A model generated the notes under the pieces. The model made no database searches, had not been told where the DNA came from, and saw only the letters and a program-made list of their open reading frames with translations. 64,000 bases of DNA from Pseudomonas entomophila (GTDB lineage Bacteria > Pseudomonadota > Gammaproteobacteria > Pseudomonadales > Pseudomonadaceae), in NCBI RefSeq assembly GCF_023277925.1, contig NZ_CP063832.1:2868001-2932000 (forward strand), in the 5' to 3' direction. The number at the start of each line of letters is the position of its first letter. The first letter of the stretch is position 1. Positions 3,660 to 36,515 of the stretch are shown piece by piece. A program made the position numbers and the translations under genes.

Positions 3660-5726
3660 ATGCCGCTGCGTCGCCTCTCCATCCAGTGGAAGATCACCTT
3701 GCTGGCCGGCCTGTGCCTGCTGGCCATCGTCGCCCTGCTGGTTGCCACCTCGCTCACCCAGGCCAGGCGCAGCGCAGCGCTGGTCAGCCAGGCCAACGCC
3801 GAGATGCTCGAACACAGCGCGCGCCTGCGCCTGCAGGCCCACGCCGAGACCCAGGCGTTACGCATCCAGCGCTACTTCATGGATGCCTACCAGTACGGCA
3901 ACGGCTTCGCCCGGCTGGTGCAGGTGCTCAAGGCGCGCGGCGACAGCGACCTGCGCACGGTACTGACTGCCCAGGCCCGCAGCGCCTTGGCGGGCAACCC
4001 GAACCTGACCGGGCTGTACCTGGTCTTCGAACCCAATGCCCTGGACCATCAGGACAGCCGCTTCGTCGCCCAGGCCGAGCTGGGCAGCAACGACAGCGGG
4101 CGCTTCTCGCTGTACTGGTCGCAATCGAGCCCTGGCGCGCTGCAAGCCGAAGCCATGCCCGAGTCGATGCTGGCCGACACCACGGTCGGCGCCAACGGTT
4201 CCCCCTACAATCGCTGGCTGACCTGCCCGCAACAGACCGCCAAGGCCTGTGTGCTCGACCCGTACTTCGACGAGGTCAACGGCCGCCAGGTACTGATGAC
4301 CAGCATCGCCCTGCCGCTGCTCGAAGGTGGCAAGGTAGTCGGCGTACTCGGCCTGGACATCGGCCTGGACAACCTGCAGCAACTGAGCCTGGATGGCCGC
4401 CAGGAGCTGTTCGACGGCCAGGGCCAAGTCAGCATCGTCAGCCCTGCCGGGTTGCTGGCCGGCAACAGCCGTGACGCCGGCAAGCTGGCCAAGCCCCTGG
4501 AGCAGACCGTGGCCGATGGCCTGTTGCGCGTCGCCCGACCGTTCACCCCGATCCCCGACGCCGCGCCCTGGCAGGTGCTTCTGGAACTGCCCGAGCAGGT
4601 ACTGCAGGCACCGGCGGTGGCCCTCAACCAGCGCCTGGACGCCCACAACCAGAGCGCCAACCTGACTAGCCTGCTGATCGGCCTGGGCGCGGCGGTCGCG
4701 GGCCTGCTGCTGGTGTGGCTGACCGCCCGCGGCGTGACCCGGCCGATCCTCGCCGTGGCTGCGCGGCTGAAGGATATCGCCAGCGGCGAAGGCGACCTGA
4801 CGCGCCGCCTGGACTACGCCCGCGACGACGAACTGGGCCAGTTGACCGGCTGGTTCAACCGTTTCCTCGACAAGCTCCAGCCGGTGATCGCCCAGGTCAA
4901 GGGCTCGCTGCAGGAAGCCCGTGGCACCGCCGATCAATCGGCGGTCATCGCCAGCCAGACCAGCGCCGGCATGCAGCAACAGCACCGCGAGATCGAACAG
5001 GTGGCCACCGCCGCCAACGAGATGAGCGCCACCGCCCAGGACGTCGCCCACAACGCCTCGCAGGCCGCCCAGGCCGCCCGTGGTGCCGACCAGGCCGCCC
5101 GCGAAGGGCTGGCGCTGGTCGACGCCAATCGTCAAGCCATCGACCAACTGGCCGGCGGCATGGACACCGCAATGCAAGAGGCGCGCGCACTGGAAAGCCG
5201 CAGCGAACAGATCGGTTCGGTGCTGGAGGTGATCCGCGCTATCGCCGAGCAGACCAACCTGCTGGCCCTCAACGCGGCCATCGAGGCGGCCCGGGCCGGC
5301 GAAGCCGGGCGTGGTTTTGCCGTGGTCGCCGATGAGGTGCGCAACCTGGCGCAGCGCACCCAGGTGTCGGTGGAGGAGATTCGCCAGGTGATCGAAGGCC
5401 TGCAGCAGGGCACTCGGGATGTGGTCGAGGCCATGCGCGGCGGCCAGCGCCAAGCCCAGGAAAGCGCCACGCAAATGGAGCGGACCCTGCCCGCCCTGCA
5501 GCGTATCGGTGAGGCGGTGGCGGTGATCACCGACATGAACCTGCAGATCGCCTCGGCGGCCGAGGAACAGAGCGCGGTGGCCGAAGAGGTAAACCGCAAC
5601 GTGGCCGGGATCCGCGATGTGACCGAGTCGCTGTCGGGACAGGCCGATGAGTCGGCGCGGATCAGCCAAGCCTTGAACCGCCTGGCCAATCAGCAACAGG
5701 CACTGATGGAGCAGTTCCGGGTGTAA
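3660..5726 (+). CDS. mcpU: Methyl-accepting chemotaxis protein, dCache type (McpU-like)
   Basis: A 688-residue transmembrane chemoreceptor. Helix TM1 is at about residues 12-32, followed by a large periplasmic ligand-binding region (about 33-330) whose size and [10 protein letters not shown] / [12 protein letters not shown] segments fit a double Cache domain. TM2 is at about 336-356, then a HAMP domain ([20 protein letters not shown]), then the cytoplasmic coiled-coil signalling domain with the highly conserved hairpin [19 protein letters not shown] near residue 530. It signals to the CheA/CheW array. Position beside a PuuP-like permease, together with general likeness, suggests McpU, the polyamine receptor of P. 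putida. That assignment comes from context and memory, not from a binding-site alignment. An AAAAGGAA ribosome site precedes the ATG. Confidence 0.85.
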
Positions 5727-5875: not shown

Positions 5876-7642
5876 GTGTCGACTTCTTCTACCCCTACTC
5901 GCAAACGCGTGGACTGGGCTGGCCTAGGCTGGCTGCTGCTGTTCTTCTGGTACTTCTCCGGCGTGACCCAGGCATTACTGCTGTTCAGCGGCACCACTGG
6001 CTTCGCTGGCTTTCGCGATGCCTTCATTCTCAGCAGCCTGTGGCTCGCCCCGGTTCTGCTGCTACCGCGCCTGACCCGCCCGCTGTCCGCGTTGATCGGG
6101 TTGGTGCTGTGGGCGTCATCGCTGGTGGGCCTGAGCTACTTCGGTATCTATCGCCAGGAGTTTTCGCAGAGCGTCATCTTCGTGATGTTCGAATCAAACA
6201 CCGCCGAAGCCAGCGAATACTTCAGCCAGTACTTCAGTGTCACGCTGTGCCTGGCGCTGCTGCTCTACACGGTCGTTGCCGTATTGCTGTGGCGACGCAT
6301 CCGCCCCGTCACCCTGCCCCTGCGCACTCGCCTGCCACTGGTCGTCATGTTGCTGGCCGCAATCCTGGTCTACCCCTTCTACAAACAGATGGTCACCCAG
6401 GAACGCTCGTTCGCCGATGCCCGGGAAAAGGTCGAGCAACGCATGGAACCCGCCGTGCCGTGGCAACTGGTGGTCGGCTACCGGCAGTATCGCCAGCAAC
6501 TGGACAACATGCAGGAACTGCTTGATAAAAACGCCGCGCTGCCTCCACTGCAAGGGCTCAAGGACAGCAACGGCGACACACCACGCACACTGGTGCTGGT
6601 ACTGGGCGAGTCCACCACCCGCGAACACATGCACGTGTACGGCTACAACCGTGACACCACGCCCAACCTCGATGCCCTGGCCGCCAGCGACAAGGGCCTG
6701 ACAGTGTTCCGCAACGTCGTCTCGCCGCGCCCCTACACCATCGAGGTGATGCAGCAGATCCTGACTTTCGGCGACGAAGAGCACCCTGATCGCTTCCTCA
6801 GCGCCCCGTCGCTGATCAACCTGATGAAACAGGCGGGCTACAAGACCTTCTGGATCACCAACCAGCAGACCATGACCAAACGCAACACCATGCTCACCAC
6901 CTTCTCCCAGCAGACGGACGAGCCGGTGTACCTGAACAACCAGCGCAACCAGAATGCCAGCCAGTACGATGACGTGGTGCTGCCCCCCTTTGAGAAGGCC
7001 TTGCAGGACCCGGCGCCGAAGAAGCTCATCATTGTCCACTTGCTCGGTACGCACATGGACTACCGCTACCGTTACCCGGCGCAGTACGAGCACTTCAAGG
7101 ACAACCAGGGGGCACCCGCAGCGCTGTCACCTGACCAGGTCGAAACCTACAACTTCTATGACAACGCAGTGCGCTACAACGACTTCGTGGTATCCAGCCT
7201 GATCAAGCGCTATTCGGCGAGCACCCCGAACGGTTTCCTGCTGTACCTCTCCGACCATGGCGAGGATGTCTACAGTTCGGGCAACCACGACCGCCTGGGC
7301 CGCAACGAAGGCGATCCGACCCGGCCGATGTACACCATCCCATTCCTGCTCTGGACCTCACCGAGCTGGCAAGCCAGCCACCCACGCGACCTGCAGGCGG
7401 CGGCCGCGCGCCCGTACAGCAGTGCGCACCTGATCCATACGCTGTCCGACCTGGCCGGCCTCAGCTACGACCTTTACGAGCCGGCCAAGAGCGTGGTCAG
7501 CGATCAGTTCGTCGCCACACCGCGCTGGATCGGCAACCCCTACGCGAAGAATGGCCTGCATGACTTCGACCAACTGCCCACCGGCAAGGCCGATAAACAG
7601 CAGACAGTCAGCAGCGACATGCCGAAGCCGGGCAAGATATGA
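5876..7642 (+). CDS. cptA: CptA/EptA-type phosphoethanolamine transferase
   Basis: A 588-residue inner-membrane enzyme that starts with GTG. Five hydrophobic helices span about residues 15-170, followed by a periplasmic alkaline-phosphatase-like (sulfatase fold) domain. GESTTREHMHVYGYNRDTTP (near residue 245) carries the Thr nucleophile region in the CptA form; SDHGEDV and the HDRLGRNE segment supply metal ligands. The family moves phosphoethanolamine from phosphatidylethanolamine to lipopolysaccharide core sugars or other glycans; CptA in Salmonella acts on the heptose of the core. The acceptor here is not evident. It lies convergent to a glycosyltransferase/acetyltransferase pair, so a shared envelope-modification role is possible. 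Its start lies 149 bp after the chemoreceptor, so it may have its own promoter. Confidence 0.8.
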   Translation: MSTSSTPTRKRVDWAGLGWLLLFFWYFSGVTQALLLFSGTTGFAGFRDAFILSSLWLAPVLLLPRLTRPLSALIGLVLWASSLVGLSYFGIYRQEFSQSVIFVMFESNTAEASEYFSQYFSVTLCLALLLYTVVAVLLWRRIRPVTLPLRTRLPLVVMLLAAILVYPFYKQMVTQERSFADAREKVEQRMEPAVPWQLVVGYRQYRQQLDNMQELLDKNAALPPLQGLKDSNGDTPRTLVLVLGESTTREHMHVYGYNRDTTPNLDALAASDKGLTVFRNVVSPRPYTIEVMQQILTFGDEEHPDRFLSAPSLINLMKQAGYKTFWITNQQTMTKRNTMLTTFSQQTDEPVYLNNQRNQNASQYDDVVLPPFEKALQDPAPKKLIIVHLLGTHMDYRYRYPAQYEHFKDNQGAPAALSPDQVETYNFYDNAVRYNDFVVSSLIKRYSASTPNGFLLYLSDHGEDVYSSGNHDRLGRNEGDPTRPMYTIPFLLWTSPSWQASHPRDLQAAAARPYSSAHLIHTLSDLAGLSYDLYEPAKSVVSDQFVATPRWIGNPYAKNGLHDFDQLPTGKADKQQTVSSDMPKPGKI

Positions 7643-7710: not shown

Positions 7711-8343
7711 TCAGGGCGCGGGGATTGCCTGGCGCTTGCGTGCATAGTCGAGAAATGCGTCCAGGTCACCACTGCAGAGCATGCGCGCCACCGCCTTCAC
7801 CTCATCGACCGGCCAGTCCCACCAGGCCGCTTCGAGCAGCGCCTCGCGTACTGGCTCGTCGAAGCGCCAGCGGATGAATTTGCATGGGTTTCCACCAACC
7901 ACAGCGTAGGGCGGCACGTCACGCGTAACCATGGCACCGGCGGCAACGATCGCGCCATGGCCGATGGTGACCCCAGAGAGAATCATCGCATTGGTGCAAA
8001 TCCAGCAGTCACTGCCGATCACCACATTACCCTTGCTTGGCGAGTAATCCTTGATGTCTTCAAGACCATCGATCTTGGCGGGAAATGGGTAGGTGGTCAG
8101 CCAATCGGTGCGGTGCTCACCGCCTAGCAGGATCTGCACGCCTTCAGCAATCGACGTGAAATTGCCGATGTGCAGCACCGCGTCGTCACCGAACTCGGTG
8201 ACCAGTGGCGTGCCATAACTACCAATTCCCACACTGCCACGGGGAAAGCTCAGACGAAGTTTCTCCGCTGCCCGGTCGAGTTTGTCCATGGCGCGCAGGC
8301 GTTTGCGCTCCCGCCGATTGATCAGTTTCTGCCAGAGATTCAA
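7711..8343 (-). CDS. CatB/VatD-like hexapeptide O-acetyltransferase
   Basis: About 210 residues. The middle and C-terminal part is a left-handed beta-helix of hexapeptide repeats (VVIGSDCWICTNAMI, then VTIGHGAIVAAGAMV, then VVGGNPCKFI). GGEHRTDWLTTYPF matches the active-site loop of xenobiotic/streptogramin acetyltransferases, where the His is catalytic; in sugar pathways the same fold acetylates glycan hydroxyls using acetyl-CoA. Start choice is uncertain: a TTG at 8343 keeps the QKLINRRERKRLRA helix, an ATG at 8289 gives 192 residues, and a GTG at 8448 would overlap the upstream glycosyltransferase by 71 bp. The upstream glycosyltransferase points to acetylation of a sugar, either on lipopolysaccharide/exopolysaccharide or on a glycosylated product of the nearby peptide locus. 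Both options are inference. Confidence 0.8.
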   Translation of the reverse strand: MNLWQKLINRRERKRLRAMDKLDRAAEKLRLSFPRGSVGIGSYGTPLVTEFGDDAVLHIGNFTSIAEGVQILLGGEHRTDWLTTYPFPAKIDGLEDIKDYSPSKGNVVIGSDCWICTNAMILSGVTIGHGAIVAAGAMVTRDVPPYAVVGGNPCKFIRWRFDEPVREALLEAAWWDWPVDEVKAVARMLCSGDLDAFLDYARKRQAIPAP

Positions 8344-8377
8344 GAAAGGTATCCAGGGGCGAAGTGGGTGAGAATCA

Positions 8378-9262
8378 TCAACGGTGGAACAACAGGCGCT
8401 TGATACGCCTGAAGGTAGTCTTGTTGTAATGGCGCAGCGGGATGCCACGCAGCAATTGCCAGGCGTAGCCCTTGTCCGACACCACCGCGTACTTCAAGGC
8501 CTTGTGCACCAGCACCGAACGCCCCCAGGCGTAGGCCGGGTGCTCGCGATACGGGGCGATGGTCTTGAGGTCGGCCTCGAGCAGCACCTTGAACTTTCGC
8601 GACAAGTTGTTGGGGTGGCGCCGATAACGCGTGACGCATACCGGAAGCTCGTGGATTTCGTAGCCCTGCGACGCAATGCGCAGGGTCATCTGGAAGTCCT
8701 GGACCTTGATCGCCGGGTCATAGAATTTCGCCGCCCGCATCGCCTCCATGCGGTACAACGAAGCCGGTGCACCGATCACCACGGCATCGCGCAGTATCTG
8801 CTCGAAGCTGAAGGTCTTGATCTCGCTGCGTTGCTGCACCTTGGTGTCGCGGCCTTCCGTGTCCATGTAGGTGATCAGCGCACCCACGCACCCTACTTTC
8901 GGGTGCTCGTCCAGATAGCGGGCACGCACGCTGAGCGAGTGTGGCAGCATGATGTCGTCCAGGTCCGGCGTCGACACATAGACGCCACGGGCATGGGCAA
9001 GCCCGGTGTTGAGTGCGCCGCTGACGCCCTGGTTGGCCTGGGTGAGGAGCGTGAAGTCGTAGGTTTTCTGCAACTCGCGCAGCATTTCCACGCTGCGGTC
9101 GCTCGAGCCATCATCGACGATGATGACTTCGAAGTTCGGGTAATCCTGAGCAAAGATACTCTGCAGGGCCTCCCGCAGGTACTTCTCGGCGTTATAGCAG
9201 GGTGCCACGACAGAGATCAGCGGGGGCTGGGTCTCACTGTGCTGCTCGCTTCCATGTGTCAT
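8378..9262 (-). CDS. GT2-family glycosyltransferase
   Basis: A 294-residue soluble GT-A fold enzyme. The N-terminal nucleotide-sugar domain shows ISVVAPCYNAEKYLREAL, IIVDDGSSDRSVEML and a metal-binding PDLDD motif (about residues 90-95). The C-terminal third is basic and helical (HYNKTTFRRIKRLLFHR) and may sit on the membrane. GT2 enzymes transfer a sugar from a nucleotide donor. Donor and acceptor are not readable here. The start is the ATG at 9262 (MTHGSEQHSE) rather than the longer 9313 frame, because homology-like sequence starts after it. It lies 158 bp downstream of the TolC-like gene on the same strand, so it may belong to the secretion operon. A TATACT hexamer in that gap, read leftwards, could also give it a promoter. 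Confidence 0.88.
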   Translation of the reverse strand: MTHGSEQHSETQPPLISVVAPCYNAEKYLREALQSIFAQDYPNFEVIIVDDGSSDRSVEMLRELQKTYDFTLLTQANQGVSGALNTGLAHARGVYVSTPDLDDIMLPHSLSVRARYLDEHPKVGCVGALITYMDTEGRDTKVQQRSEIKTFSFEQILRDAVVIGAPASLYRMEAMRAAKFYDPAIKVQDFQMTLRIASQGYEIHELPVCVTRYRRHPNNLSRKFKVLLEADLKTIAPYREHPAYAWGRSVLVHKALKYAVVSDKGYAWQLLRGIPLRHYNKTTFRRIKRLLFHR

Positions 9263-9420
9263 TGATCTGAGGCGCCTCTGGCCGCGGTGGAATGGCCTCC
9301 CGACAGGCAGCATGACAGTGTTGCGCCGGGCGAACGAGAGTATACGCGATCAGATAGTGAACACGACAAAGCCTGCATATGCAATGCCACACACGGACAT
9401 CCGGCCTGCGGGGAACACCG

Positions 9421-10767
9421 TCACTGCCCCAATTGCCCCAGGTCCGCCGCCAACTGCAGCCTCGCGGTATACCATTCGACCACCGAACTGACCCGGCGCT
9501 GTTGCGCACTCGCTAGGTCGTTCTGCGCATTCAGCAGCTCGATGATGCTCCCGACGCCGGCCTTGTAGCGCCCCAATGCCACCCGGTACGACTGGCTGGC
9601 ACTCCCGACCAGGCGCCGACTGATGGCCAAGGCCTGGGTGCGCGCCTCGAGGGCCTGGCGGCTGCGCCATACACTCAGGGCAATGCTGCGCTCGGCTTGC
9701 TGCAGGTCCTGCTCACGCGCACCGGCTTCGTACTCGGCGGCGCGGGTCCGACGCCGGGCGAGGAAACCGTCGAAAATCGGCACAGTGACTTGCAGCCCCA
9801 CCGTCCAGGTCTCTATCTGCTGGCGCGAAGCCACCTGCTCCACCGGCGTGTCGTCGTGCCGATAACTGCTGTACAAAGCGATCTTCGGTCGCCCCTGGGC
9901 GCGCTCCGCATCGGCCCTGGCCAGGCTCGACGACCATTCGGCGCGAGCCTTCGCCACGGACGGGTGGTTGCGCCTGGCTTGCTCCATCAGGGCATCGACG
10001 CCGGCCATGAAGGCCGTTTCCTGTCCCTCGGGCTCATTCAGGGCCTCGAGCCGTAGCGGCGTGGACGGCGAAAGGCTGAGCGCACTGGCAAGCGCCCCCC
10101 GGGCCGTGGCCAGGTCACCCTCGGCCAGCACCCGCTCGAGCCGGGCCTGTTCGTAGGTGGTTTGCGCCTGCAAGCGATCGGCCTGCTCACCCGCGCCAGC
10201 CTGATGCTTGGCGGTCGTCACCTTGAAGCTGTCAGCGGCCAGCGCCTCGATACTGCGACGCGCTTCGAGCAACGCATCATTGGCCTGCACCTGGTAGAAC
10301 GCCTTGCTGGTGTCGAGCACCACCTGCTGGATCTTCGCCACCCGGCTGCTGCTCGCCGCATTGAGCAGTTGCCGGGCACTTTCCACCTTGGCTTCGCGCA
10401 GGCCGAAGTCGTACAGCACCCAGTTGAGGTTCACGCCATAGCTGCTGGTACGCGCATCCAGCGTCGAGTTTGCGTCGGAGAAGCCCTCGTAACGGGTCTT
10501 GCGGTTGGCCCTGCCGGTGCTGGCGACGCCCTGCAGCGTCGGCCAGTAGGCAGACTGCTCGGCCTCCATGCTGGCCTGGCTGCTCAGCTGCGTGCGCCAG
10601 GCCGCCTCGAGTTCAGGGTCGGCGCACAGCGCCATGGCCACCGCCCGCGACAAACCCAGCGCCTCCCCCGGGCGCAAAGGCCCGGGGCACGCCTGCAATG
10701 CCCCGACAGCCAGACACGGCAGGCTCGACAGCGCAAGCAGCGCGGTCAAGCGTCGCCACCCGTTCAT
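9421..10767 (-). CDS. TolC-family outer membrane channel of the peptide exporter
   Basis: A 448-residue protein with an N-terminal signal peptide (hydrophobic LTALLALSSLPCLAVGAL, about residues 8-25). Long alpha-helical coiled segments follow, and two internally related halves, each with a beta-barrel hairpin (SYGVNLNWVLYDFGLRE and WTVGLQVTVPIFDGF), are the hallmark of TolC/OEP proteins. Trimers form the outer-membrane channel-tunnel for type I secretion. Its ATG overlaps the stop of the ABC exporter by 4 bp (ATGA), so the two are translationally coupled. A dedicated TolC homologue encoded with the exporter suggests a full export path to the outside. Confidence 0.92.
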   Translation of the reverse strand: MNGWRRLTALLALSSLPCLAVGALQACPGPLRPGEALGLSRAVAMALCADPELEAAWRTQLSSQASMEAEQSAYWPTLQGVASTGRANRKTRYEGFSDANSTLDARTSSYGVNLNWVLYDFGLREAKVESARQLLNAASSSRVAKIQQVVLDTSKAFYQVQANDALLEARRSIEALAADSFKVTTAKHQAGAGEQADRLQAQTTYEQARLERVLAEGDLATARGALASALSLSPSTPLRLEALNEPEGQETAFMAGVDALMEQARRNHPSVAKARAEWSSSLARADAERAQGRPKIALYSSYRHDDTPVEQVASRQQIETWTVGLQVTVPIFDGFLARRRTRAAEYEAGAREQDLQQAERSIALSVWRSRQALEARTQALAISRRLVGSASQSYRVALGRYKAGVGSIIELLNAQNDLASAQQRRVSSVVEWYTARLQLAADLGQLGQ

Positions 10768-12890
10768 GGCGCGGCGTCTTGCCGGGGGCCATTGCCGGCC
10801 AATCGACCGTTGACCAAGGCCACCACACGCTGTGCCGAGCGTATCGTGTCTGGTCGGTGGGCAACGATCACCCGCGTGATGTTCAACGTTTGCAGAGCCT
10901 GGTTCACCGCGTTCTCGCGCTGGATATCCAGGTGGCTGGTGGCTTCGTCGAGAAACAGCAACCTAGGTTTGCGATAGAGCGCACGCGCCAACAGGATACG
11001 TTGCTTCTGCCCACCCGAGAGCACCGTGCCCATGTCCCCGACCAGGGTGTTGTAGGCCATCGGCATGCGCACGATATCCTCATGCACCGCGGCCAGCCGG
11101 GCGCATTGCTCGACCCAGCTCTGGTCGACGTCACTGGCGAAGAAGCTGATATTGTCGCCGATCGAGCCGGCGAACAGCACGTCGTCCTGCAGCACTGTGG
11201 CGCTGATACTCCGCAGCCGGTCGAGGTTGTTCGCATCCACCGGTTCACCGTCCAGCAGCACCTGCCCCTCGACCGGTGGCAGGATGCCAAGCATGACATT
11301 GAGCAAGGTGGTCTTGCCGCACCCGGACGGCCCGACAATGGCCAGCGACTCGCCCGGCTCGACGGTCAACGAGAGACCATCGAGCACCCAGGGCTCATGG
11401 TCCGAATAACGAAACCGCAACTGACGCACCTCCAGCCGCGGCACCGGGCCGTCCGGCGGCACATCCACCAACCCTCCCCGCCCCTCGGCCTGCTGCAGCA
11501 CGATGTCTGCCAGGCGCTCGCCATGCAGGCGCAGCATCACCACATCCACCAGCTTGTCGATCAGCCCCGCCACCCGGCCATTGAATTGGTCCTTGTAGGC
11601 ATTGAAGGCGATCAGCATGCCGGCGCTGAACACCCCCTCGATCACCTGCCTGGCACCCAGCCAGATCACCAGCAGTGTCACCGTGCCGAACAGCAAACCG
11701 TTGAATGCGCGGTACAACAGTTGCAGTTTCTGCGGACGCAGCCCGGCATTGATCTCGTCCACCAACAGGCCACCCCAGACCGTGGCGCGCTGCTCCTGGC
11801 GAGCGAATAGCTTGAGCGTGCGCACCCCACGCATGGTTTCCAGGAAGTAACTCTGCTGCCGGGCGGCACGCACCAGCTCCTCCTCGCTGGCCCGCCGCAA
11901 TGGGCCGAACCAGGCCCAGCGCGCCAACGCATAGAGCAGCATGGCGGCGACCGCGATCAATGCCAGCGGCGGGCTGTAGAGGAACATCAAGGCCAGAGTG
12001 ACCACCGTCATCATCCCGTCGAGCAAGGCCTCGATGAACGACGTGGTCAGGGTGCGCTGGATCGCCTTGAGCGAGCCGAAGCGCGAGACGATATCGCCCA
12101 GGTGGCGGCGCTCGAAGTAAGCCACCGGCAAACGCACCAGGTGGTTGAACACATTGATCTGCCACTGGCTGCCGAGCAAGGTACCGAGGTACATCAACGC
12201 CCAGGATCGCGCCAGCGACAGGGCCTGCTGGGCCACCAGCAACAGGCCGAAACCGAGTGCCAGCACCGCCAGCAAGTCGCGGTCGGCGCTGACCAGCACC
12301 TTGTCGATCACCGTTTGCAGGAAGAACGGCGTCAGGATCATGCACACCTCCAGCGCCACGCCCAACGCCAGCACATGCCCAAGCACCCCGCCAAAGCCCT
12401 GCACTCGGCCGAGCAAACGCCGCAGCGGCAACGGGGTCTTCGTTTCGCCGGGCTGGAAATCATCGTGTGGCCACAGCTCGAGGGCGACGCCGGTAAAGGC
12501 CTCGGACACCGCCTGGCGGGTCAGCCGGCAAACGCCACGCGCCGGGTCGTGCAGCGTCACCCAACGGGGGCCGACCTCCTTGAGCACCACGAAATGGTTG
12601 AAGTTCCAATGCAAGATGCACGGCAGCTTGAGCTGCTCCAGCGCCTCCAGCTCCAGGCGCAATGGCCGGCTGGCCAAGCCCAGTTGCGCCGCCATGGCCA
12701 TCAGTTGCTTGAGCGTTGCCCCCTTCATCGAGGGCGACAGCTTCTGACGCAGCGACGGCAGGTCGTGCACCTGCCCGTGATAGGCGGCGATCATCGCCAG
12801 ACAAGCCTGGCCGCACTCCGCCGCCTCGACCTGGAGGATGACCGGCAGCTTGCGGCCGACGCCGAAATTCAGGGATTGGGCGATACTCAC
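10764..12890 (-). CDS. Peptidase-containing (C39) ABC exporter
   Basis: A 708-residue peptidase-containing ABC transporter. Residues 1-130 form a C39 cysteine protease with a complete triad: Cys26 in EAAECGQAC, His99 in HWNFNHFVVL and Asp115 in LHDPARG. A six-helix transmembrane domain follows (about 155-430), then an ATPase domain with Walker A GPSGCGKTT, signature LSGGQKQR and Walker B RLLFLDEATSHLD. Such exporters cut double-glycine leaders and push the mature peptide out. A cognate substrate with a GG leader is encoded divergently at 14394. The start is the GTG at 12890, which overlaps the HlyD stop (GTGA) and has AGGAAAA upstream; the longer frame to 12929 has no support. Confidence 0.95.
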   Translation of the reverse strand: MSIAQSLNFGVGRKLPVILQVEAAECGQACLAMIAAYHGQVHDLPSLRQKLSPSMKGATLKQLMAMAAQLGLASRPLRLELEALEQLKLPCILHWNFNHFVVLKEVGPRWVTLHDPARGVCRLTRQAVSEAFTGVALELWPHDDFQPGETKTPLPLRRLLGRVQGFGGVLGHVLALGVALEVCMILTPFFLQTVIDKVLVSADRDLLAVLALGFGLLLVAQQALSLARSWALMYLGTLLGSQWQINVFNHLVRLPVAYFERRHLGDIVSRFGSLKAIQRTLTTSFIEALLDGMMTVVTLALMFLYSPPLALIAVAAMLLYALARWAWFGPLRRASEEELVRAARQQSYFLETMRGVRTLKLFARQEQRATVWGGLLVDEINAGLRPQKLQLLYRAFNGLLFGTVTLLVIWLGARQVIEGVFSAGMLIAFNAYKDQFNGRVAGLIDKLVDVVMLRLHGERLADIVLQQAEGRGGLVDVPPDGPVPRLEVRQLRFRYSDHEPWVLDGLSLTVEPGESLAIVGPSGCGKTTLLNVMLGILPPVEGQVLLDGEPVDANNLDRLRSISATVLQDDVLFAGSIGDNISFFASDVDQSWVEQCARLAAVHEDIVRMPMAYNTLVGDMGTVLSGGQKQRILLARALYRKPRLLFLDEATSHLDIQRENAVNQALQTLNITRVIVAHRPDTIRSAQRVVALVNGRLAGNGPRQDAAP

Positions 12891-14143
12891 AGTCGTTTTC
12901 CTATGCCGCGCAGTGGCTCGAGCAGCCATTCATAAAGCGGCAGGTTTTCCAGCATGATGTCGGCGTCCAATTGCATGCCCGAGCGCAGGCGCTCTTCGCG
13001 CCCGCGGGCGAACAGGCTCTGCCGCTCCAGGGTGACCCGCACCCGGTACAACGGCCCCTGCTCGCGCAACGCTTCGGAGGCCGCGCCCACGGTCATGATT
13101 TCATCGGCGGGCAAGGCGCTGCGCGACACCGAGGCCACTGTTCCCCGGGCCAGGCCGAAGTGCTGGTAGGGGTAGGCCTGATAACGCAGCATCACCGCGT
13201 GGCCGGGCCGCACGAAGCCGGCCGAGCGACTGGGCACGTACAGTTCGGCGTAGAGCTGGCTGTCCTGGGGCACCAGGCTGAACAGTGGGCGGCTGACGTC
13301 GGCGCGGGCACCGTTGACCACGCCGATGGCGGTTACCTCTCCGGCGGCCGGCGCGGTGATGACGACCTGCCGCTTCACCTCGCTTTCCAGCAGACTACTC
13401 TGGCTCTCCAGCAAGCGTCGGTCGAGATCCGCCAGTTGCTTGGTCTGGTTGAAAGGCAGTTCGGCAAGCTCGGCGCGCAGGGCGGCGCTGTCATTACGCA
13501 GGGCCAACAGTGAGCGATTCAGCTCTTCGGCCCGCAAGCGCACTTCGAGCACCGCATCCTGCTTGGCTTGCAGCAGATCACGGGAAACGAAGTCCTGGCG
13601 CTGCAGTTCCAAGTAGCGCTCAGCGATGCCCTGGGCCAGGGCCAGCCGTTGAGCGGTCAGGGCAATCTGCGCAGCAACCTTGTCCTGCTCGCCCTGCAGC
13701 ATCGCCAGGCGCCGCTGCTTGCCCTCGCGCTCCTGCTGGTGCAGCACCCTGGTTTCGGTGATTTCATCGGCCAGGCTGCTGTTGCGGCGCTGGATGAGGC
13801 GGCTGATAGCGACCTGGTTGGCACTGGCATCGCCATTGTGGGTGTCGCTGACCAGGGTCAACAAGGCTGCCCCCGCCCGCACCTGCTGGCCCTCGCTGAC
13901 AGCCAGGTCCTGGACTACCCCCACCTGGGGCGCAAAGACCTTGACCAGCCCCCCTTCAGGCACCAGCACACCCGTGACGGCTTCGCGCCGGGTATAGCTG
14001 GCAAGGCCGAGGAACAGCGCCAGCAGGATGCAAAACAGCACTGCACCTGCCCCCGCCAGCCGCAACGACGGCGGCGAGACCAGCACCACGTTGCCCAGTT
14101 CCTTGTCCCTGCCTGCGTGCAGCGCTTCCTTTCGAAATAGCAT
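12887..14143 (-). CDS. HlyD-family periplasmic adaptor of the peptide exporter
   Basis: A 418-residue membrane fusion protein. It starts MLFRKEALHAGRDKELG, the usual beginning of colicin-V-type secretion adaptors, followed by one transmembrane helix (about residues 25-48), a lipoyl-like half (GGLVKVFAPQVGVVQDLAV), a long coiled-coil hairpin (about 110-235) and a second lipoyl/beta-barrel half (VVITAPAAGEVTAIGVVNG). It bridges the ABC exporter and the TolC-like channel across the periplasm. First gene of the leftward hlyD-abc-tolC operon, with 4-bp overlaps at both junctions. The start at 14143 was chosen on family pattern; the frame is open further upstream but that part is not family-like. 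Confidence 0.92.
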   Translation of the reverse strand: MLFRKEALHAGRDKELGNVVLVSPPSLRLAGAGAVLFCILLALFLGLASYTRREAVTGVLVPEGGLVKVFAPQVGVVQDLAVSEGQQVRAGAALLTLVSDTHNGDASANQVAISRLIQRRNSSLADEITETRVLHQQEREGKQRRLAMLQGEQDKVAAQIALTAQRLALAQGIAERYLELQRQDFVSRDLLQAKQDAVLEVRLRAEELNRSLLALRNDSAALRAELAELPFNQTKQLADLDRRLLESQSSLLESEVKRQVVITAPAAGEVTAIGVVNGARADVSRPLFSLVPQDSQLYAELYVPSRSAGFVRPGHAVMLRYQAYPYQHFGLARGTVASVSRSALPADEIMTVGAASEALREQGPLYRVRVTLERQSLFARGREERLRSGMQLDADIMLENLPLYEWLLEPLRGIGKRL

Positions 14144-14393
14144 TCCCTGACCACGATTCCGGCAAACCTGTACAGCCAGCCTAAACAGGCAGAAACCGGT
14201 CGGCACTAGTACAGGTGGACTATTGCGCGAAGCTCGAGGAGATCGGCTGGAGGGCGCCACGACAGTGGCATGACGACATTAGGTCACCCGTGCTATTGCC
14301 TGAAACAGGCGGGGCGGGAAGTATTTCGCCATGCCCTGGACAACAGGGCGTGCATCAGACGGAACAACACCAAAGAGAAAGAGGAAGCTCTCA

Positions 14394-14591
14394 ATGAACA
14401 CCGAACAAGAAAACCTTCGTGCCCTCAGCACCGACGAACTGGACCAGGTCAGCGGCGGCTTCTCGGTCTCGGCCTTTGGCTACCATGTCGGCGCTGACGT
14501 CGTGAACTATGGCCAGGGCGACATCCTGCACGTCAGCTGGGGCTCAGACAACTCCTACAACTTCAGGGAATTCCAGCTGTGCACGCAGTGA
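14394..14591 (+). CDS. Double-glycine-leader secreted peptide precursor (bacteriocin-like)
   Basis: A 65-residue precursor. Residues 1-22 are a textbook GG leader, ending LSTDELDQVSGG with conserved Leu, Ser, Glu, Leu, Val and Gly-Gly at the expected spacing for a C39 peptidase. Cleavage would release a 43-residue peptide beginning FSVSAFGYHVG and ending FREFQLCTQ, rich in Gly, Ser, Tyr and Asn, with a single Cys near the C terminus and so no intramolecular disulfide. An AGAGGAAG ribosome site lies 9 bp before the ATG at 14394; the frame is open further upstream but lacks such a site. It is divergent from the hlyD-abc-tolC operon (250-bp shared intergenic region), making that exporter its likely secretion route. 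I recognise no core-peptide family and see no immunity gene beside it. It could be a microcin, glycocin-like peptide or signal peptide; function is unproven. Confidence 0.85.
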   Translation: MNTEQENLRALSTDELDQVSGGFSVSAFGYHVGADVVNYGQGDILHVSWGSDNSYNFREFQLCTQ

Positions 14592-14668
14592 CTGGTCGCC
14601 GCCGGACATTCGCCTGAAACGCCAGCGCCAGAGGCTCGACAGCCTTGGGTGAGCTGGACGGCAAAAAC

Positions 14669-14705
14669 GAAAAACCCCGCTCCATTGCTGGAAGCGGGGT
14701 TTTTC
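14669..14705. terminator. Bidirectional intrinsic terminator (peptide gene / tRNA-Lys)
   Basis: Stem AAAACCCCGC...GCGGGGTTTT with an additional TCC/GGA pairing and T-runs on both strands. It ends the rightward peptide transcript and the leftward tRNA-Lys transcript. Confidence 0.85.
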
Positions 14706-14715
14706 ATACTGCATA

Positions 14716-14791
14716 TGGTGGGTCGTGTAGGATTCGAACCTACGACCAATTGGTTAAAAGCCAACTGCTCTACCAACTGAGCTAACGACCC
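14716..14791 (-). tRNA. tRNA-Lys (anticodon TTT)
   Basis: The reverse strand reads GGGTCGTTAGCTCAGTTGGT..., with a CTTTTAA anticodon loop, a GGTTCGAATCC T-arm and an encoded 3' ACCA; 76 nt. The acceptor stem GGGTCGT/ACGACCC pairs perfectly. tRNA genes are common integration sites, and the peptide-export locus lies directly downstream, but no attachment-site repeat was found. Confidence 0.97.
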
Positions 14792-14805
14792 GTTGGATGG
14801 CGCGT

Positions 14806-14833
14806 ATATTACTGATTTCTCAGAGGAAATCAA
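14806..14833 (-). promoter_or_regulatory. Promoter of tRNA-Lys
   Basis: On the reverse strand TTGATT, a 16-bp spacer and TAATAT lie just upstream of the tRNA 5' end at 14791, a good sigma-70 match at the right distance. Confidence 0.65.
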
Positions 14834-14851
14834 CACCCCATCGTAAAAAAA

Positions 14852-15526
14852 TCAAAAATACCGGGTCGGATCTTCCACACCGGCAGCCTTGAAGCCATCG
14901 GCACGCAGGCGGCAACTGTCGCACTTGCCACAGGCACGCCCCTCGTCATCGGCCTGGTAGCAGGACACGGTAAGGCTGTAGTCCACGCCCTGGGCGATGC
15001 CCGCCTGGACGATCTGGGCCTTGCTCAAGTTCTGCAAGGGCGCCTGGATACGGAAGCCCTGCCCCTCGACACCGGCCTTGGTCGCGAGGTTGGCCATGCG
15101 CTCGAAGGCCTCGACGAATTCGGGGCGGCAGTCCGGGTAGCCGGAGTAGTCAACCGCGTTCACTCCAATGAAGATATCGCGAGCTTCGAGCACTTCCGCC
15201 CACCCCAGGGCCAGCGAAAGAAACACGGTATTGCGCGCTGGCACGTAAGTCACCGGAATGCCCTCACCTGGCGCCTCAGGCACATCGATGCTGCTGTCGG
15301 TCAGGGCCGAGCCCCCAATGCCGTTGAGGTTCAGGCCGATCACCTTGTGCTCGACAACGCCCAGGTCGCGGGCGACCCGGGCCGCGGCATCGAGCTCGGC
15401 ACGATGCCGCTGGCCGTAGTCGAAGCTCATGGTGTAGCAGGCATAGCCTTCGGCCTTGGCCAAAGCCACCACGGTGGCCGAGTCCAGGCCACCGGAAAGC
15501 AGGATTACCGCGCGTTTTTCAGTCAT
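14852..15526 (-). CDS. queC: 7-cyano-7-deazaguanine synthase
   Basis: A 224-residue enzyme that converts 7-carboxy-7-deazaguanine to preQ0 with ATP and ammonia in queuosine synthesis. The ATP-binding PP-loop is [11 protein letters not shown] at about residues 9-19. A zinc site is formed by the four cysteines of [17 protein letters not shown] near residues 188-204. It follows queE by 10 bp on the same strand and forms a two-gene queuosine unit with it. Full length for the family. Confidence 0.97.
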
Positions 15527-36021: not shown

Positions 36022-36098
<77 letters not shown>

Positions 36099-36108
36099 GA
36101 TTCAAGAA

Positions 36109-36138
36109 AAGGCCACTGTTTCGACAGTGGCCTTTTTT
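36109..36138 (+). terminator. Terminator of first initiator tRNA
   Basis: AAGGCCACTGT / ACAGTGGCCTT with a TTCG tetraloop and a T-run. Confidence 0.92.
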
Positions 36139-36190
36139 ATTGCCTCTCGAAAGCTTTTCGAAAAAATCACGCCAAATCAAAGATTAACGT

Positions 36191-36218
36191 TTGACATCCC
36201 ATCGAAAGCCCGTAGAAT
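36191..36218 (+). promoter_or_regulatory. Promoter of second initiator tRNA
   Basis: TTGACA, 16 bp, TAGAAT, in a unit almost identical to the third. Confidence 0.8.
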
Positions 36219-36230
36219 GCGCACCTCTGA

Positions 36231-36307
<77 letters not shown>

Positions 36308-36316
36308 GATTCAAGA

Positions 36317-36347
36317 AAGGCCACTGTTTCGACAGTGGCCTTTTTTT
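36317..36347 (+). terminator. Terminator of second initiator tRNA
   Basis: Same AAGGCCACTGT / ACAGTGGCCTT hairpin with TTCG loop and T-run as after copy 1. Confidence 0.92.
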
Positions 36348-36398
36348 ATGCCTCTCGAAAGCTTTTCGAAAAAACCACGCTAAATCAAAGATTAACGT

Positions 36399-36426
36399 TT
36401 GACATCCCATCGAAAGCCCGTAGAAT
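36399..36426 (+). promoter_or_regulatory. Promoter of third initiator tRNA
   Basis: TTGACA, 16 bp, TAGAAT; tandem copy of the second promoter, 208 bp downstream. Confidence 0.8.
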
Positions 36427-36438
36427 GCACACCTCTGA

Positions 36439-36515
<77 letters not shown>

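What the first reader, a model, noticed from the sequence alone, without database searches (positions are those of the whole stretch)
7711..14591. Candidate glycocin-like secreted peptide system in a pseudomonad
Seen: a 65-residue precursor with a canonical GG leader (LSTDELDQVSGG); a divergent operon for HlyD adaptor, an ABC exporter with a full C39 triad (Cys26, His99, Asp115) and a dedicated TolC-like channel; then on the same strand a GT2 glycosyltransferase and an O-acetyltransferase. The predicted 43-residue core has a single Cys near its end plus many Ser. Known: in sublancin-type glycocins a GT2 enzyme puts a sugar on a core Cys and a C39 exporter trims the leader. Inferred: the GT2 and acetyltransferase here may decorate the peptide instead of, or as well as, lipopolysaccharide. 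I recognise no characterised core family, and there is no adjacent immunity gene.
Basis: partly seen in the sequence, partly recalled or inferred. Interest (0 to 1): 0.82.

Follow-up and report, generated by a model that had tools for sequence, protein, structure and literature searches.

The report
Pseudomonas secreted small peptide system
This is a small secreted peptide with its own dedicated export machine and its own conserved DNA control site in Pseudomonas; the neighbouring sugar-adding enzyme that suggested a sugar-coated antibiotic turns out to be a separate passenger.

Summary
Observation confirmed: a 65-residue double-glycine (GG) precursor lies divergent from a HlyD / C39-ABC / TolC operon, with GT2 and acetyltransferase genes beyond. 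The glycocin reading fails. Of 398 Pseudomonas genomes, 13 carry this exporter type; 3 of them have the GT2 nearby. Of 50 genomes with a close GT2, 47 lack the exporter beside it, and 14 of 15 sampled such loci keep the acetyltransferase: a separate module. The core has one cysteine, so no nested disulfides as in sublancin or glycocin F; relatives keep that cysteine with no GT2 at the locus.

Conserved are peptide, HlyD, C39-ABC, TolC and a quasi-palindromic operator (about TAGtACAnnTGtaCTA) between peptide and hlyD. Searching four genomes with a pattern drawn from these loci found 0, 1, 0 and 1 copies elsewhere, so control looks local. In two relatives with P. syringae-type peptides, copies also precede lipoproteins, a porin, an autotransporter and a second GG peptide, beside kinases and a LuxR-type regulator. 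The core is under purifying selection and predicted four-stranded. No conserved immunity gene was found. Most likely: a dedicated, regulated type I-secreted peptide, unmodified by GT2, microcin-like in export; target unknown.

The parts
14394..14591 (+). GG-leader peptide precursor, 65 aa; leader 14394-14459, predicted cleavage after Gly22, core 14460-14588 (43 aa, monoisotopic mass about 4813.2 Da if unmodified and reduced)
   Evidence: homologues; dN/dS
12887..14143 (-). HlyD-type periplasmic adaptor, 418 aa from the Met at 14143
   Evidence: (homology begins at residue 37 of the longer ORF in L024-L028)
10764..12890 (-). C39 peptidase-containing ABC exporter, 708 aa, GTG start overlapping the HlyD stop; Cys26, His99, Asp115
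   Evidence: (match to the bacteriocin ABC transporter of PDB 4ry2 over residues 14-703)
9421..10767 (-). dedicated TolC-family outer membrane channel, 448 aa
14207..14222 (.). operator copy 1, TAGTACAGGTGGACTA
   Evidence: at the same place, with 1-2 mismatches to the palindrome, in 9 of 9 aligned group A loci
14280..14295 (.). operator copy 2 (weaker, 4 mismatches to the palindrome), TAGGTCACCCGTGCTA, inside a near-invariant block
8378..9262 (-). GT2 glycosyltransferase: neighbour, judged NOT part of the peptide system
7711..8382 (-). CatB/Vat-like hexapeptide acetyltransferase next to GT2: neighbour, judged NOT part of the peptide system (start uncertain)
5876..7642 (+). cptA-type phosphoethanolamine transferase, flanking gene
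   Evidence: NF012179, above cut-off
14716..14791 (-). tRNA-Lys(TTT) bounding the variable site before queC

Best explanation
A dedicated type I secretion locus for a small GG-leader peptide that the GT2 does not modify. Shown from sequence: the precursor has a canonical leader; the C39 domain has its catalytic triad; adaptor and channel are encoded with it; peptide and exporter are divergent from one intergenic region carrying two copies (one strong, one weak) of a conserved operator. Inferred: the C39 domain cuts after Gly22 during export and a 43-residue, mostly beta-sheet core is released; transcription is switched by a LuxR-type response regulator binding the operator (a homologue lies elsewhere in this genome). 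Role, committed but least certain: a microcin-like peptide acting on neighbouring bacteria (my split: antagonism about 0.45, signalling about 0.25, surface or matrix role about 0.2, other 0.1). GT2 and acetyltransferase are an independent two-gene module that landed in the same variable site between an MCP gene and tRNA-Lys/queC.
For: Exporter operon beside the peptide in 10 of 11 loci (L032 has only distant ABC and HlyD). HlyD of this type (63-100% identity) in 13 of 398 genomes (21 of 398 at E<=1e-70); peptide seen in 12 of the 13, the other ends at a contig edge. C39 triad; the best-scoring listed PDB match that spans the whole protein is a bacteriocin ABC exporter. Operator copy in the hlyD-peptide spacer of 9/9 group A and 3/3 group B loci and of the four group C loci with a complete spacer. 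Outside these loci, exact matches to TAGYNCANNTGNRCTA number 0 (G334), 1 (G213), 0 (G211) and 1 (G000) per genome, against 6, 6, 1 and 1 inside. Response-regulator homologue in 12 of 13 exporter genomes against 132 of 385 others, one-sided Fisher p 3e-5, no correction for relatedness; the exception, G347, also lacks tolC in the 19 kb fetched. Core dN/dS 0.03-0.48 in 8 pairs. Four of five group C loci encode two further GG peptides, one Gly/Ala-rich.
Against: No conserved immunity ORF next to the peptide; the core (43 aa) is shorter than the 60-90 aa of the ten class II microcins reviewed in PMC10233263 (passages); five group C cores (P0012-P0016) are almost identical, although P0017-P0019 and P0022 diverge: all this is weaker for a toxin. 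The operator pattern was drawn from these same loci, so its presence there is by construction; the backward control pattern had 1-5 matches per strand per genome, so the few outside copies are chance-level and only the lack of a wider regulon is informative. Against five resampled sequences each, sites with up to 4 mismatches exceed expectation clearly in L077 (9 against 1.8), L075 (6 against 1.6) and L076 (6 against 2.4) but only modestly in L079 (7 against 4.0), L078 (2 against 1.2) and the 64-kb window (6 against 3.4). No copy with three or fewer mismatches lies beside the regulator gene in this genome or in ten regulator loci, and only 2 of 5 group C loci carry the regulator within the locus, so regulator-operator pairing is inferred. 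The regulator is far more widespread than the exporter (144 of 398). GT2 is co-directional with the exporter and no terminator was called between them, so co-transcription in this strain is not excluded. AlphaFold confidence is moderate (mean pLDDT 67.7).
Confidence: 0.7

Rival explanations
1. Glycocin-like system: GT2 puts a sugar on the core Cys or Ser, the acetyltransferase acetylates the sugar or peptide, and the C39 exporter trims and exports it.
For: Co-direction and proximity in the window and in two relatives, L022 and L088; conserved C-terminal Cys in groups A and B.
Against: Linkage in 3 of 13 exporter genomes and 3 of 50 close-GT2 genomes; GT2-AT pair is autonomous (14 of 15); Cys conserved where GT2 is absent from the locus; single Cys. 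No entry named SunS among the 27 PDB sequences matched by GT2, though several rows say only 'Glycosyltransferase' (weak evidence).
Confidence: 0.04
2. Colicin V-type class II microcin with an immunity gene encoded elsewhere or not recognised.
For: GG leader, C39 exporter, adaptor; sources name some relatives 'bacteriocin' (P0003, P0010, P0015, P0020); several GG peptides in four of five group C loci.
Against: No adjacent immunity ORF conserved; core length 43; no siderophore-type Ser/Gly tail.
Confidence: 0.35
3. Peptide pheromone: the exported core is sensed by a membrane hybrid histidine kinase, which signals to the LuxR-type regulator; this binds the operator and drives peptide, exporter and surface genes.
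For: Group C: a hybrid kinase gene follows the peptide gene on the same strand in 3 of 4 loci with a complete peptide side (L075, L077, L079); a second kinase near tolC in 4 of 5 loci and the regulator there in 2 of 5 (L077, L079); operator before peptide/exporter and surface genes; no conserved immunity gene.
Against: No such kinase gene at group A or B loci; in L076 and L078 the regulator is not in the locus but on another contig of the genome; in the window genome the kinase-regulator pair is about 1 Mb away; the kinases' C-terminal parts match a common NahK/ErcS type below its cut-off; ligand unknown.
Confidence: 0.25
4. Surface or matrix peptide: the beta-rich core assembles or adheres outside the cell, co-regulated in relatives with an autotransporter, lipoproteins and a FadL-like porin.
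For: Predicted four-stranded core; operator copies before surface genes in group C.
Against: No convincing fold match; those surface genes were not seen in the stretches of group A loci that I listed.
Confidence: 0.2

Closest known systems
Class II microcins (MccV type; PMC10233263, passages read)
   Same: GG leader, C39-ABC exporter and HlyD adaptor encoded beside the precursor
   Different: own TolC gene in the operon; core of 43 instead of 60-90 aa; no conserved adjacent immunity ORF; divergent gene order with a conserved operator
Sublancin/glycocin F-type glycocins (PMC12457901, passages read)
   Same: C39 exporter; GG leader (described there as the common motif)
   Different: glycosyltransferase not linked across relatives; one Cys, so no nested disulfides; no thiol-disulfide isomerase gene among the six genes of the block
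Neisseria Nap peptides (PMC11798529, passages read)
   Same: small GG peptides with a C39 peptidase and an outer membrane channel; shows that such peptides need not kill competitors
   Different: Nap channel is FapF-related and peptides are cationic; here a full HlyD/ABC/TolC exporter and an acidic core (pI about 4.6)
Pseudomonas proteins named only 'bacteriocin' or 'hypothetical protein' (P0001, P0003, P0010, P0015)
   Same: homologues; the group A ones 50-91% identical, P0015 (group C) over 35% of the query only
   Different: names come from the sources' annotation; the paper searches listed no study of them (lists capped in 47 and 76)

Membership tests
Glycocin | glycosyltransferase gene belongs to the cluster and travels with the precursor | tested here: not met
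   3 of 13 exporter genomes have GT2 nearby; 47 of 50 close GT2 genes are not beside the exporter
Glycocin | core with two nested disulfides plus a glycosylated Cys/Ser (sublancin, glycocin F, thermoglycocin) | tested here: not met
   one Cys in the 43-residue core; none in most group C cores
Glycocin | thioredoxin-like thiol-disulfide isomerase in the cluster (as in the thg cluster) | tested here: not met
   the six genes of 7711-14591 have other Pfam assignments or, for the peptide, none
Glycocin | C39 peptidase exporter | tested here: met
Glycocin | sugar on the secreted peptide | not testable with these tools
   needs mass spectrometry
Class II microcin | double-glycine leader | tested here: met
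   R9, L11, E15, V19, G21, G22 invariant in all 16 rows of A2
Class II microcin | C39-ABC exporter and adaptor beside the precursor | tested here: met
Class II microcin | adjacent immunity gene (51-216 aa) | tested here: not met
   of the ORFs of 20 aa or more in 14101-14860, none other than the peptide's own frame is intact in all six relatives compared; a 46-aa antisense ORF is intact in three of six. A lineage-specific or distant immunity gene is not excluded
Class II microcin | core of 60-90 aa (the ten reviewed in PMC10233263) | tested here: not met
   43 aa
Class II microcin | antibacterial activity | not testable with these tools
   needs bioassay
Class IIb (siderophore) microcin | C-terminal Ser/Gly-rich siderophore motif | tested here: not met
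   C-terminus SYNFREFQLCTQ
C39 (PCAT) type I secretion system | C39-ABC with intact triad + HlyD adaptor + TolC channel | tested here: met
Known small beta folds | convincing structural match of the core | tested here: inconclusive

The most novel reading that the evidence does not exclude
A Gram-negative peptide-pheromone circuit: a GG peptide exported by its own C39 type I system is sensed by a hybrid histidine kinase and, through a LuxR-type regulator and a locus-specific operator, controls its own export and a set of surface proteins; the window carries a streamlined version whose regulator is encoded elsewhere in the genome.
Probability: 0.2. Interest if true: 0.75.

Novelty: new variant of a known kind. 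Interest (0 to 1): 0.45.

Why it matters
The characterised microcins reviewed in 2022 were all enterobacterial (PMC10233263, passages). This family spans P. putida-, P. donghuensis- and P. syringae-type pseudomonads, has no conserved immunity gene, and has a conserved operator that gives an easy reporter handle. It lets one ask directly whether such peptides are toxins, signals or structural parts. It also removes a tempting but wrong glycocin annotation, and shows GT2-AT as a separate recurrent module.

Tried and rejected
Glycocin: rejected (linkage, Cys count). SunS likeness of GT2: sequence search of the PDB gave 27 matches at E<=0.001, none named SunS; I did not fold GT2. Viral contigs: 11 stretches matched a pattern, none encoded a relative. 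A first leader-like DNA pattern did not fit even the window's own leader and found one unrelated place, so it says nothing. Operator copy 1 as a 20-mer with up to 3 mismatches: one place in the genome, the window's own, against one control match. A looser operator pattern with one mismatch was not enriched over its control in the window genome (10 against 8 strand matches). In one search the control counts (pattern read backwards, 1-5 per strand) are close to the real ones, the pattern was drawn from the loci it then found, and the places of control matches were not shown. Fold searches of the core gave only middling matches (chains of Vif/CBF-beta complexes and Pur-alpha), not interpreted. 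Peptide hits dropped: 6 of 18 genomes (G189, G405, G143, G144, G363, G406) and a second hit in G148 matched only in part and were treated as chance. In one search, 22 of 38 proteins have E<=1e-3; the other 16 were not used. The truncated P0005 was left out of alignment A2. Of 47 unlinked close GT2 genes I fetched 15 neighbourhoods. Group D exporters (8 genomes, 9 places, HlyD 38-42%) were set aside as different systems. MCP, queC, queE, permease, oxidoreductase and cation-efflux genes are named by reading their sequences, not by a family scan. That the kinases' membrane part recalls RpfC-type sensors is recollection, from no call. On checking I found that only 2 of 5 group C loci carry the regulator and 3 of 5 the first kinase; I lowered the signalling share from about 0.3 to 0.25 for that.
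Full report
What is there. The window (G000:C1:2868001-2932000 of a 5.76-Mb Pseudomonas genome) holds, between an MCP gene (3660-5726) with cptA (5876-7642) and tRNA-Lys/queC (14716-14791, 14852-15526), a block of six genes (MCP and queC recognised by reading). On the plus strand is a 65-residue precursor (14394-14591); on the minus strand HlyD (12887-14143), C39-ABC exporter (10764-12890), TolC (9421-10767), GT2 (8378-9262) and a CatB/Vat-like acetyltransferase (7711 to about 8382). The C39 triad is Cys26, His99, Asp115; the exporter matches the bacteriocin ABC transporter of PDB 4ry2 over residues 14-703 (higher-scoring rows are multidrug pumps that match from about residue 180-250 on).

Is GT2 part of it? 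Eleven named loci encoding a peptide relative were compared with the window. Ten of 11 have HlyD, ABC and TolC beside the peptide; L032 has only distant ABC and HlyD. GT2 and the acetyltransferase occur in 1 of 11 (L022, P. entomophila COR5), and in one more unnamed relative (L088). By reading, L023 holds a permease and an oxidoreductase between TolC and cptA, and five loci (L024-L028) hold a cation-efflux-type gene between TolC and the MCP gene. In 398 Pseudomonas genomes, HlyD matches at E<=1e-70 in 21; 13 of these are 63-100% identical (groups A-C), 8 are 38-42% (group D). GT2 matches at E<=1e-40 in 232 of 398; 50 are close (59% identity or more). Six genomes have both a close GT2 and an A-C exporter, but only three within 5 kb; the others are 461 kb apart or on different contigs. 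Of the 47 unlinked close GT2 genes, 15 neighbourhoods of 12-13 kb were fetched: 14 of 15 keep the acetyltransferase next to GT2 (in L101 in two pieces) and none has peptide or exporter. One of them (L090) has the GT2-AT pair beside queC, as in the window, without the peptide system. The neighbours of these pairs fall into several repeated chromosomal contexts, whose functions I did not scan. GT2-AT is therefore an autonomous module; what it modifies is not settled here.

The peptide family. Two protein searches and genome searches give three groups with one leader type. Group A (window; P. entomophila, P. vlassakiae, P. putida, P. ceruminis and others) has cores such as SAFGYHVGADVVNYGQGDILHVSWG...YNF..F.LC; group B (P. 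donghuensis, P. wadenswilerensis, P. rubra) ends in LCK or MCK; group C (names given by sources: P. syringae, P. cannabina, P. cichorii, P. congelans) has cores IEFSAFGYTFAGGESFAPG..., mostly without Cys. The C-terminal Cys is thus common in A and B, present where no GT2 is at the locus, and dispensable in C. P0012 and P0015 differ at 3 of 40 core positions although their leaders differ widely; P0017-P0019 and P0022 diverge more. Core dN/dS was 0.03-0.48 in the 8 group A pairs computed (of 36 possible); leader values ranged 0.08-1.91, one undefined, on only 22 codons. AlphaFold2 on a 16-row alignment gives a leader helix and a core of four strands (23-27, 30-38, 43-51, 54-61) with block pLDDT of 66-82 over the core and mean 67.7 overall; no fold match is convincing.

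The control region. Aligning the hlyD-peptide spacer of nine group A loci showed two near-invariant blocks that are copies, one of them weaker, of one quasi-palindrome, TAGTACAnnTGTACTA; group B (3 of 3) and group C (4 of 4 with a complete spacer) have it in the same spacer. Exact matches to TAGYNCANNTGNRCTA in whole genomes: 6 in G334, all within 14 kb at the peptide locus; 7 in G213, 6 in the locus; 1 in G211, in the spacer; 2 in G000, one in the spacer. The pattern was drawn from these loci, so finding it there is by construction; what the search adds is that hardly any copies lie elsewhere, and the backward control shows 1-5 chance matches per strand. Counts of sites with up to 4 mismatches against resampled sequence are clearly raised in L075, L076 and L077, less so in L078, L079 and the whole window. 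In group C, copies with up to 2 mismatches stand before hlyD/peptide (L075, L076, L077, L079), lipoprotein genes and an autotransporter (L075, L076, L077, L079), a FadL-like porin (L077, L079), and the Gly/Ala-rich GG peptide (L076, L077, L078, L079).

Regulator. Of five group C loci, three carry a hybrid histidine kinase gene downstream of the peptide gene (L075, L077, L079), four a second one near tolC (L076-L079), and two a LuxR-type response regulator (L077, L079). The window genome has a regulator 59% identical to that of L077, with such a kinase, about 1 Mb away. Among 398 genomes a homologue (E<=1e-45) is in 144: 12 of the 13 exporter genomes and 132 of 385 others (one-sided Fisher p 3e-5, not corrected for relatedness). 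The exception, G347, lacks tolC, the second kinase and the extra peptides in the 19 kb fetched, with other genes there. No copy with three or fewer mismatches lies in the 13-kb stretch around the regulator gene of this genome or in ten regulator loci. That this regulator binds this operator is inference.

Function. Export and leader removal follow from established C39 exporter biology (recalled; PMC10233263 passages). Role is open. For antagonism: microcin-like export, several GG peptides in group C, patchy occurrence (13 of 398). Against: no conserved immunity ORF, short core. For signalling: a kinase next to the peptide gene in 3 of 4 group C loci with a complete peptide side, a conserved operator. 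Against: no such kinase at A or B loci, regulator in the locus in only 2 of 5. PMC11798529 (passages) shows that bacteriocin-like GG peptides can lack antibacterial activity. I put antagonism at about 0.45, signalling 0.25, surface role 0.2, other 0.1.

Literature. Searches of the held open-access library listed no paper on this Pseudomonas family; the lists of 27, 47 and 76 were capped (20 of 70, 20 of 59, 12 of 27), I judged by titles and abstract starts, and subscription papers are mostly not held. Papers used were seen as passages only (PMC13174018, PMC3262810, PMC11798529, PMC10233263, PMC12457901).

Noticed in passing
L077 and L079 (group C loci): A wider island: three kinds of GG peptide, two hybrid kinases, a LuxR-type regulator, two lipoproteins, a FadL-like porin and an autotransporter, with 7 operator copies (up to 2 mismatches) each.
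   Followed up: partly
L090:5454-6990: GT2-acetyltransferase pair sits next to queC without the peptide system: the queC side of this site receives different cargo in different genomes.
   Followed up: partly
L080-L087: More distant C39 exporters (HlyD 38-42% identical), one beside queC (L080), one beside a GG peptide and a protein with RTX-like repeats (L085, by reading).
   Followed up: no
L120:4596-11974: In the window genome the kinase-regulator pair is followed by a 1575-residue RHS-repeat protein with an LHH nuclease-like C-terminal domain.
   Followed up: no
window 36022-36515: Three tRNA-Met genes in tandem.
   Followed up: no
L075:12433-17826: The tolC, second-kinase and extra-peptide side of this group C locus is replaced by other genes while peptide, HlyD, ABC and first kinase remain.
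   Followed up: no
L023: The record title says Pantoea sp. Cy-639, but a contig of the same length (467872) belongs to G367, which the genome search places in the window's genus.
   Followed up: no
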